Below, piece after piece: positions 60,311-60,933 of a DNA stretch of 64,000 bases. The number at the start of each line of letters is the position of its first letter. The first letter of the stretch is position 1. The stretch is from Misgurnus anguillicaudatus (lineage: Eukaryota > Chordata > Actinopteri > Cypriniformes > Cobitidae): the NCBI RefSeq assembly GCF_027580225.2, contig NC_073361.2:33621501-33685500 (forward strand). Reading direction: 5' to 3'. The position numbers and the translations under genes are program-made. Below the pieces are notes generated by a model that was not told the origin of the DNA, did no database searches, and was given only the letters and a program-made list of their open reading frames with translations.

Positions 60311-60433
60311 GTCTCAGTGTTTGGTCTGGTGGCGCATGCGCTCGATTATGACCAAATCGGTACCATGCGGGTTCTAAGGACACTGCGGGCTCTGCGACCT
60401 CTCCGAGCTGTGTCCCGCTTTGCTGGGATGAGG
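60311..60433 (+). CDS. scn5a: Sodium channel alpha subunit, domain III S3-S4 exon, alternative copy 1
   Basis: Forty-one codons, phase 0 at both ends, acceptor attcacacag and donor gtaaga, no stop. It codes for the second half of S3 (VSVFGLVAHALDYDQIG), a short S3-S4 loop, and S4 (MRVLRTLRALRPLRAVSRF), with all gating arginines at three-residue spacing. The outermost charge is Arg where copy 2 has Lys. It shares 25 of 41 residues with copy 2 but differs in most of the S3b/loop and at E-to-A in SRFAGMR. The acceptor tract is weak in pyrimidines. Tandem domain III S3-S4 exons are known in SCN8A (exons 18N/18A, where 18N has a stop) and insect para (k/l). It could be a fetal- or tissue-specific exon; a decayed pseudo-exon is less likely since it is fully open. 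Confidence 0.88.
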
Positions 60434-60810
60434 GTAAGACCCGCTCCGACCTGGGCCCGTCACCGCCTTGCGCCTTTTAAGTGCACTCGATAGACGAGTT
60501 GAAGCTGCGCTCTGAACAACCTTTTCATTCTTTACCAGGTCAAGAGTGGGGGATAAAACCAGCCCATGTTATTTAAACACAAAACTAACCACTAACACAT
60601 GTCAAGCCTTCTGCAGGATCCATCGGATCACTGGAACTGGGTTTCCCAGAAAACAACTAATAATCCTCTTCTTCCTCTTAGGAGAGAAGCGGCTCAATCC
60701 TTCTTTCTAAAAGTTTGTTCTGCAGGTACAGATGGAGCTCGTGACTGTTATTTGTCTCCTAATGCTGCATTTATATCTTCTCTTTCTTCTGGACTTTGTG
60801 TCATTCGTAG
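60434..60810 (+). promoter_or_regulatory. Intron between the two alternative voltage-sensor exons
   Basis: 377 nt. It starts gtaaga. The last 45 nt before the acceptor of copy 2 include TATATCTTCTCTTTCTTCTG, a dense set of UCUU-type motifs matching known PTB-binding words, ending in cattcgtag. No other element is seen. Confidence 0.6.
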
Positions 60811-60933
60811 GTGTCACTAGTCAGCCTTGTAGCAAACACGCTCGGTTACTCGGACTTCGCTGCCATCAAATCACTCAGAACGCTGAGAGCGCTCAGACCA
60901 TTAAGAGCGCTGTCCAGATTTGAAGGCATGAGG
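60811..60933 (+). CDS. scn5a: Sodium channel alpha subunit, domain III S3-S4 exon, alternative copy 2
   Basis: Forty-one codons, phase 0 at both ends, acceptor ttcgtag and donor gtaaga. It gives VSLVSLVANTLGYSDFAAIK then SLRTLRALRPLRALSRFEGMR, the standard vertebrate form (Nav1.5 reads VSLVSLVANTLGF here as I recall). S4 carries one Lys and five Arg in the usual three-residue spacing. It is exactly as long as copy 1 and starts and ends in the same phase, so either can join exon 56624-56797 to the next exon, which lies outside the window. Confidence 0.97.

What the first reader, a model, noticed from the sequence alone, without database searches (positions are those of the whole stretch)
60311..60933. 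Tandem, intact, interchangeable domain III voltage-sensor exons in an scn5a-type gene
Two consecutive 123-nt exons (60311-60433, 60811-60933) both encode the end of S3 and the whole S4 of domain III, both phase 0, both with AG/GT borders and no stops. Either fits after the exon ending at FLIVD. They agree at 25 of 41 residues. In the S4 core of 12 identical residues only one codon is identical between copies, so the duplication is old and protein sequence has been held by selection. Similar tandem exons are known in SCN8A (18N, with a stop, and 18A) and insect para (k/l). I do not know of an intact pair in an SCN5A ortholog. The S3b/loop part differs strongly, which would be expected to change domain III activation and toxin sensitivity.
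Basis: partly seen in the sequence, partly recalled or inferred. Interest (0 to 1): 0.92.

Follow-up and report, generated by a model that had tools for sequence, protein, structure and literature searches.

The report
Second voltage-sensor exon in SCN5A
A fish gene for the heart-type sodium channel carries two intact, side-by-side versions of the exon that encodes one of its voltage sensors, and gene models from sharks to turtles carry the same pair, so these animals likely build two versions of the channel by choosing between them.

Summary
Window 60311-60433 (copy 1, here N) and 60811-60933 (copy 2, here A) are 123-nt, phase-0, stop-free exons with AG/GT borders, 25 of 41 residues alike, and one identical codon among the 12 residues of the S4 core. 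The gene falls in the SCN5A lineage, near the eel gene labelled type V-like alpha b. Copy 1 is not a local oddity. A matching N exon appears in predicted proteins of 48 species, from sharks to teleosts, lungfish, amphibians and reptiles. In the 32 tandem models counted, the first exon is N-type and the second A-type. In 21 species a model splices N alone to the next exon. One lizard has A-only and N-only isoforms that differ only within this exon. N and A peptides part at one branch (99/96), and a separate teleost duplication is rejected (p-AU 0.003), so the pair likely predates jawed-vertebrate radiation. The S4 charges are kept. Mutually exclusive use and altered gating are inferred; no RNA was available. 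It is not SCN1A poison exon 20N, which lies downstream of the S4 exon and shows no similarity.

The parts
56624..56797 (+). upstream exon, domain III S1 end to S3 start (174 nt), ends FLIVD, donor GTAAGT
60311..60433 (+). exon N (copy 1): alternative end of S3, S3-S4 loop, S4 and start of S4-S5 linker of domain III, 123 nt, phase 0, donor GTAAGA
   Evidence: homologues; N-type score +44.6
60434..60810 (+). 377-nt intron between N and A; probably too long for steric exclusion of splicing
   Evidence: the remark on steric exclusion is general knowledge
60811..60933 (+). exon A (copy 2): canonical domain III S3-S4 exon, 123 nt, phase 0, donor GTAAGA; peptide identical to exon A of Pampus and Solea
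60952..61092 (+). (TC)70 tract, 18 nt after the end of exon A; possible binding tract for a CU-binding splicing repressor (inference)
53479..53633 (+). exon with domain III S1 region (155 nt)
46588..46708 (+). exon in the II-III linker (121 nt)
39373..39810 (+). exon: end of domain II S6 and II-III linker (438 nt)
15867..16223 (+). exon: domain II S4 end to S6 (357 nt)
15591..15764 (+). exon: domain II S2-S4 (174 nt)
8355..8593 (+). exon: I-II linker end and domain II S1 (239 nt)
539..845 (+). part of an exon in the I-II linker; its start was not fixed

Best explanation
This is a tandem pair of intact alternative exons, N then A, for the S3-S4 voltage sensor of domain III in a fish sodium channel gene of the SCN5A lineage, and the pre-mRNA likely takes one or the other, giving two channel versions predicted to differ in how voltage sensor III moves. 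Shown: both exons are open, same length, same phase, same borders; the same pair in the same order occurs in gene models of cartilaginous and bony vertebrates; N and A peptides form two separate groups; the gating charges are kept in both. Inferred: the pair arose once, before jawed vertebrates spread, and has been held by selection. Inferred: N and A are spliced alternatively, with A as default. Predicted: N keeps a working S4 but changes the outer end of S3, the S3-S4 loop and the first residues of the S4-S5 linker, which would shift the activation or immobilisation of sensor III and so the inactivation, recovery or persistent current, as insect exons k/l do at this place.
For: Intact exons with matching borders. 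N-type exons in 48 species: 7 cartilaginous fishes, 1 sturgeon, 14 teleosts, 1 lungfish, 6 amphibians, 9 turtles, 3 crocodilians, 7 squamates (counted with exons read in 24, 29, 30, 47, 52). In 32 tandem models (P0131, P0176 and P0113 set aside) the first exons, 23 distinct peptides, all score N-type on leave-one-out (at least +11.8), and the second exons, 16 distinct, all score A-type (at most -25.4); window copy 1 scores +44.6 and copy 2 -55.4. N-only models spliced to VVVNAL in 21 species. Hemicordylus isoforms P0132 (N) and P0163 (A) are the same length and differ at 14 of 2023 residues, all at 1292-1331. On 16 pairs (15 species and the window) N and A part at one branch (99/96), a teleost-only duplication is rejected (p-AU 0.00265), and 16 of 16 N peptides are closer to another species' N than to their own A. 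Gene tree: the 30 of the 48 species that were put in it all fall inside the SCN5A clade (SH-aLRT 99 and 100), window beside Carassius (99 in both). Positive charge at S4 positions 20, 23, 26, 29, 32 and 36 in 43 of 43 distinct N-type peptides. Insect k/l at the same place change persistent current (PMC4309913, passages).
Against: No RNA was examined. The homologues are predicted proteins, some from pipelines whose transcript support I did not see, and only open copies can appear in a protein database. Models of 28 species place both exons in one protein, which, if real, contradicts exclusive use. Best human match does not always say SCN5A: the window fragment scores SCN3A, 2A, 1A, 8A and 9A above SCN5A, and the shark P0200 and chimaera P0138 score SCN1A above SCN5A (2686 against 2581, and 1711 against 1623); the lineage call for them rests on the tree. 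The acceptor of N is only mildly weaker than that of A (pyrimidines 55% against 65%, and another exon also has 55%). No TGCATG (RBFOX) site lies in the N-A intron or in the 3.1 kb held downstream of A, unlike SCN8A 18A (PMC13011093, passage). No functional data exist here.
Confidence: 0.82

Rival explanations
1. Both exons are joined in series in the mature mRNA, adding 41 residues with an extra S4-like segment; the exon is a coding or deadening insert rather than an alternative.
For: Both exons are symmetric (123 nt, phase 0), so double inclusion keeps the frame. Gene models of 28 species hold both in series, several of them NCBI isoforms.
Against: 21 species have N-only models, and Hemicordylus has A-only, N-only and both. 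Two S4 segments in series would break the known domain topology (general knowledge). Pipelines without transcript support may join any open exon.
Confidence: 0.08
2. Copy 1 is an unused relic or splicing decoy that happens to be open.
For: No RNA evidence here; a somewhat weaker acceptor; the bat and bird SCN5A proteins in the listing show only A.
Against: Peptide type held in 48 species across jawed vertebrates, with the S4 charges kept and saturated synonymous change between copies. A relic would not be expected to keep an open frame that long.
Confidence: 0.04
3. The exon was duplicated independently in this fish or in teleosts.
For: Teleost N peptides share their own residues (RVLRT, RFAG) not seen in the shark and tetrapod N exons listed.
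Against: Teleost N plus A as one clade is rejected (p-AU 0.00265), and N and A part at one branch. Only 41 columns were used and the tree is unrooted.
Confidence: 0.02
4. Copy 1 is the intact counterpart of the poison exons 18N of SCN8A and 20N of SCN1A.
For: Same part of the gene and same family; 18N and 18A are described as mutually exclusive exons for domain III S3-S4 (PMC3809569; PMC8383430), and PMC4309913 counts Nav1.1 too.
Against: SCN1A 20N is spliced between EGMR and VVNALL, downstream of the S4 exon, is 64 nt, and none of its three frames resembles N or A more than shuffles do. 18N is about 70 nt by product sizes and is reported as 37.5% identical to 20N in mouse and 57% in human (PMC7790302). 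The 18N sequence itself was not available to me.
Confidence: 0.12

Closest known systems
Insect para (DmNav) exons k/l and cockroach BgNav G1/G2/G3
   Same: Domain III S3-S4, mutually exclusive; k and l differ at 16 of 41 residues (PMC4309913, passages), the same number as N and A here
   Different: Arthropod gene; whether the duplication is shared with vertebrates was not tested here. The tunicate and two leech channels found here each show one exon in their models
SCN8A exons 18N/18A
   Same: Vertebrate sodium channel, domain III S3-S4, alternative exons (PMC3809569, passage)
   Different: 18N holds a stop and is about 70 nt by product sizes, so only 18A gives a full channel; here both exons are 123 nt and open
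SCN1A poison exon 20N
   Same: Conserved alternative exon close to the domain III S4 exon
   Different: 64 nt, frameshifting, downstream of the S4 exon, no peptide similarity
Exons 5N/5A of SCN1A, 2A, 3A, 8A and 6A/6N of SCN5A
   Same: Both coding, mutually exclusive S3-S4 exons (passages)
   Different: Domain I, outside the present window; few residues differ (3 in Nav1.1) against 16 here

Membership tests
SCN5A lineage (scn5lab) of sodium channels | Falls with SCN5A orthologues in a gene tree built without the S4 exon | tested here: met
   SCN5 clade SH-aLRT 99 and 100, window beside Carassius 99, SCN1-group and an SCN4A-like row outside; no SCN8A row was in the tree. The eel relative scores SCN5A 2897 bits, SCN2A 2858, SCN8A 2704, SCN4A 2669. 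Against: the 696-residue window fragment scores SCN3A (1029), 2A, 1A, 8A and 9A above SCN5A (956)
Domain III S3-S4 mutually exclusive exon pairs (para k/l type) | Two adjacent exons of equal phase encoding the same S3-S4 stretch of domain III | tested here: met
Domain III S3-S4 mutually exclusive exon pairs (para k/l type) | Both exons encode an intact S4 with its charges | tested here: met
Domain III S3-S4 mutually exclusive exon pairs (para k/l type) | Only one of the two is present per mRNA | tested here: inconclusive
   Models only: N-only in 21 species, both in 28 species, A-only and N-only in Hemicordylus
SCN8A 18N type poison exon | In-frame stop or frameshift in the N copy | tested here: not met
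   123 nt, no stop
SCN1A 20N poison exon | Lies between the S4 exon and the VVNAL exon; 64 nt | tested here: not met
   N lies upstream of A and is 123 nt; the 20N position comes from printed primers

The most novel reading that the evidence does not exclude
Jawed vertebrates inherited a sodium channel with two interchangeable, fully coding domain III voltage sensors; the SCN5A lineage has kept both for over 400 million years while the mammalian heart channel kept one, and SCN2A-like genes of amphibians and lungfish, with lamprey and hagfish channels, hold N-like exons that would place the pair before the two vertebrate genome duplications.
Probability: 0.35. Interest if true: 0.8.

Novelty: new member of a known kind. 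Interest (0 to 1): 0.64.

Why it matters
The domain III voltage sensor bears on fast inactivation and on recovery in heart channels (general knowledge). A second, selected version of it in sharks, fish, amphibians and reptiles would mean that their hearts or neurons can retune SCN5A-type current by splicing, which mammal models would miss if mammals lack it. It would also give a natural experiment: two sensors with the same charges but different S3b, loop and linker residues. PMC8383430 states that a second mutually exclusive pair is reported in SCN8A only, among the four brain genes it studied (abstract passage), so this would widen the known set.

Tried and rejected
Relic of poison exons: I first expected N to be the intact ancestor of 18N and 20N. 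The printed primers of PMC7790302 place 20N after the S4 exon, and its three frames match N or A no better than shuffles (285, 252 and 151 of 300 shuffles as good). Rejected for 20N, open for 18N.

Teleost-specific duplication: rejected.

RBFOX control as in SCN8A: no TGCATG on the + strand after 59457 in the window; three sites lie in the 3.5-kb intron upstream of N, and the window holds 36 in 64 kb, so that is no clear enrichment.

Hyperolius SCN2A-like X2 and X3 looked like an N/A isoform pair but are different genes (1533 of 1963 aligned residues alike).

Ophiophagus P0176 looked like a decayed N exon; its protein looks like a chimeric model and was dropped.

Structure prediction was not run: the only N-only model under the length limit (P0065, 762 residues) begins at the end of domain III S2.

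Own genome: the genome search did not complete, so the other sodium channel genes of this fish were not read.

Full report
What is there. The + strand of the window holds exons of a voltage-gated sodium channel gene from the I-II linker to domain III S4. The last exon before the site, 56624-56797, ends in FLIVD. Then come copy 1 at 60311-60433, called N here, and copy 2 at 60811-60933, called A. Both are 123 nt, phase 0, open, and flanked by AG and GTAAGA. They share 25 of 41 residues and 74 of 123 bases. Counts by Nei-Gojobori give pS 0.77 and pN 0.25; the S4 half has pN 0.11 and the S3b-loop half 0.39. So synonymous sites are saturated while S4 has been held. This speaks against recent duplication and against recent gene conversion.

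Which gene. The joined fragment without S4 is 86% identical to a Carassius protein, 83% to Astyanax, 82% to Bagarius and 78% to an Anguilla protein labelled type V-like alpha b (names). Trees built without the S4 exon (57 rows; 71 rows; quick method, SH-aLRT support only) place the window beside Carassius (99 in both) in a clade with mammalian, bird and reptile SCN5A (99 and 100), apart from the SCN1/2/3/9 group. One SCN4A-like row (P0202; the name is from my recall of SCN4A) falls outside with weak placement; no SCN8A row was included. The full-length eel protein scores human SCN5A highest (2897 bits; next SCN2A 2858), and the domain III piece of the window also scores SCN5A highest (219.8; SCN4A 216.9). 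Against this, the 696-residue window fragment scores SCN3A (1029), 2A, 1A, 8A and 9A above SCN5A (956), and the shark P0200 and chimaera P0138 score SCN1A above SCN5A. For those the lineage call rests on the tree. Sources label some of these genes type 1, 2 or 4; the tree does not support those labels.

Is copy 1 conserved. Three searches of the protein database were made with the N exon of the window, of a turtle and of a chimaera as the scored region (113 hits of 142 candidates, all listed; 120 listed of 5,248; 120 listed of 5,255). The database is clustered at 90% identity, so isoforms of one gene can be hidden behind one entry. In the listed proteins I find N-type exons in 48 species of this lineage: 7 cartilaginous fishes, Acipenser, 14 teleosts, Protopterus, 6 amphibians, 9 turtles, 3 crocodilians and 7 squamates (exons read). 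Thirty of the 48 were put in the tree and fall in the SCN5 clade; the other 18 rest on similarity of the exon. The bat and bird SCN5A proteins listed carry only A; with 120 of about 5,250 listed, that is no proof of loss in mammals and birds.

Order and use in gene models. Thirty-two clean tandem models were used (P0131, with a one-residue insert but the same order, P0176, a chimera, and P0113, a tunicate, were set aside). First exons were taken as N and second exons as A; on leave-one-out the 23 distinct first peptides all score N-type and the 16 distinct second peptides all score A-type, so no model has the order reversed. Twenty-eight species have models with both exons in series. Twenty-one have N-only models that join VVVNAL directly, with the same borders as A; Callorhinchus N models run into other sequence after N and are not counted in the 21. 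Two species, Hemicordylus and Pelodiscus, are in both groups. In Hemicordylus capensis the A-only and N-only isoforms have equal length and differ at 14 of 2023 residues, all at 1292-1331; other isoforms of that gene hold both. These are predictions, and I saw no reads.

One old duplication. The leave-one-out scores do not overlap (N at least +11.8, A at most -25.4). Window copy 1 scores +44.6 and copy 2 -55.4. The copy-2 peptide is also among the A training peptides, because Solea and Pampus have the same one. In a tree of 16 N/A pairs (15 species and the window) the two parts split at one branch (99/96). Holding teleost N and A together costs 19 log units (p-AU 0.00265), and every N is closer to another species' N than to its own A (16 of 16). 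The tree has only 41 columns, some long branches and no root, so it does not say which exon is the older form. The simplest reading is one duplication before the split of cartilaginous and bony fishes.

What N keeps and changes. Lys or Arg at position 20 and Arg at 23, 26, 29 and 32 are found in 43 of 43 distinct N-type peptides; position 36 is Arg in 42 and Lys in one (the 43 include the window, the tunicate and the amphibian SCN2A-like peptides noted below). N-typical residues lie at the end of S3 and in the loop: mostly I-S-V at 1-3, Cys or Gly at 5, Asp or Glu at 14, Gln or His at 15, where A has mostly V-S-L, Ser, Ser and Glu/Asp. In teleosts N also changes S4 and the linker start (RVLRT, RFAG). 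Inference: a working sensor with a different outer end and linker. At this place insect exons k and l change persistent current (PMC4309913, passages).

Control. The intron between N and A is 377 nt. The N acceptor has 55% pyrimidines against 65% for A; the exon at 8355 also has 55%, so N is at most mildly weaker. A (TC)70 tract begins 18 nt after exon A; that a CU-binding repressor acts there is a guess. No TGCATG lies on the + strand between 59457 and the end of the window, whereas SCN8A 18A depends on such sites downstream (PMC13011093, passage).

Known kinds. Papers seen, as passages only: PMC13011093, PMC7790302, PMC8383430, PMC4309913, PMC6115389, PMC3809569, PMC6889285, PMC11981616, PMC4436565, PMC5132174 and PMC8476164. 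None of the passages shown reports a domain III S3-S4 pair in SCN5A. Ten literature searches were run; I saw their listings and only the papers named above beyond that. The library lacks most subscription journals, and I did not see the 1997 SCN8A paper. SCN1A 20N was tested and is different. For 18N I had no sequence; its order before 18A is my recollection.

Beyond SCN5A. Amphibian and lungfish SCN2A-like proteins (5 species) carry ISIISLLAVALGYDQLAAIKS-type exons. They score near zero: +2.3 or +1.8 in four species and -1.0 in Ambystoma. Lamprey scores -3.0 and hagfish -4.5, while the A exons of the SCN1/2/3/9 group in the printed part of the ranking score -31.8 or lower. They look N-like but are not settled, and I did not see an A isoform of the same genes. 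The one tunicate peptide also scores near zero (+1.3), so a score near zero is weak evidence. If these are true N exons, the pair is older than the split of SCN1 and SCN5 genes.

Verdict. The kind is known (Nav domain III alternative S3-S4 exons); the vertebrate SCN5A pair with both exons coding was not found reported in what I could search. The functional claim waits for RNA and electrophysiology.

Noticed in passing
window 60952-61092: A perfect (TC)70 microsatellite starts 18 nt after the end of exon A; a possible CU-rich splicing control tract, perhaps variable in length.
   Followed up: partly
P0218, P0222, P0223, P0224, P0225, P0232: SCN2A-like channels of frogs, a salamander and a lungfish carry an N-like domain III exon (ISIISLLAVALGYDQLAAIKS...), different from the ordinary A exon of that group.
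   Followed up: partly
P0212, P0213, P0219: Lamprey and hagfish channels show an exon intermediate between N and A (scores -3.0 and -4.5).
   Followed up: partly
PMC7790302, primers: SCN1A poison exon 20N lies between the S4 exon and the VVNAL exon, and its mouse sequence does not resemble a voltage-sensor exon, although it is discussed next to SCN8A 18N.
   Followed up: yes
names column: Several fish and shark genes of the SCN5A clade are named type 1, 2, 4 or 4B subunit in public records; labels do not follow the tree.
   Followed up: no
P0154, P0162, P0172 (tree): The second teleost SCN5 clade (mormyrids, Sebastes) shows only exon A in the listed models; whether it lost N was not tested.
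   Followed up: no
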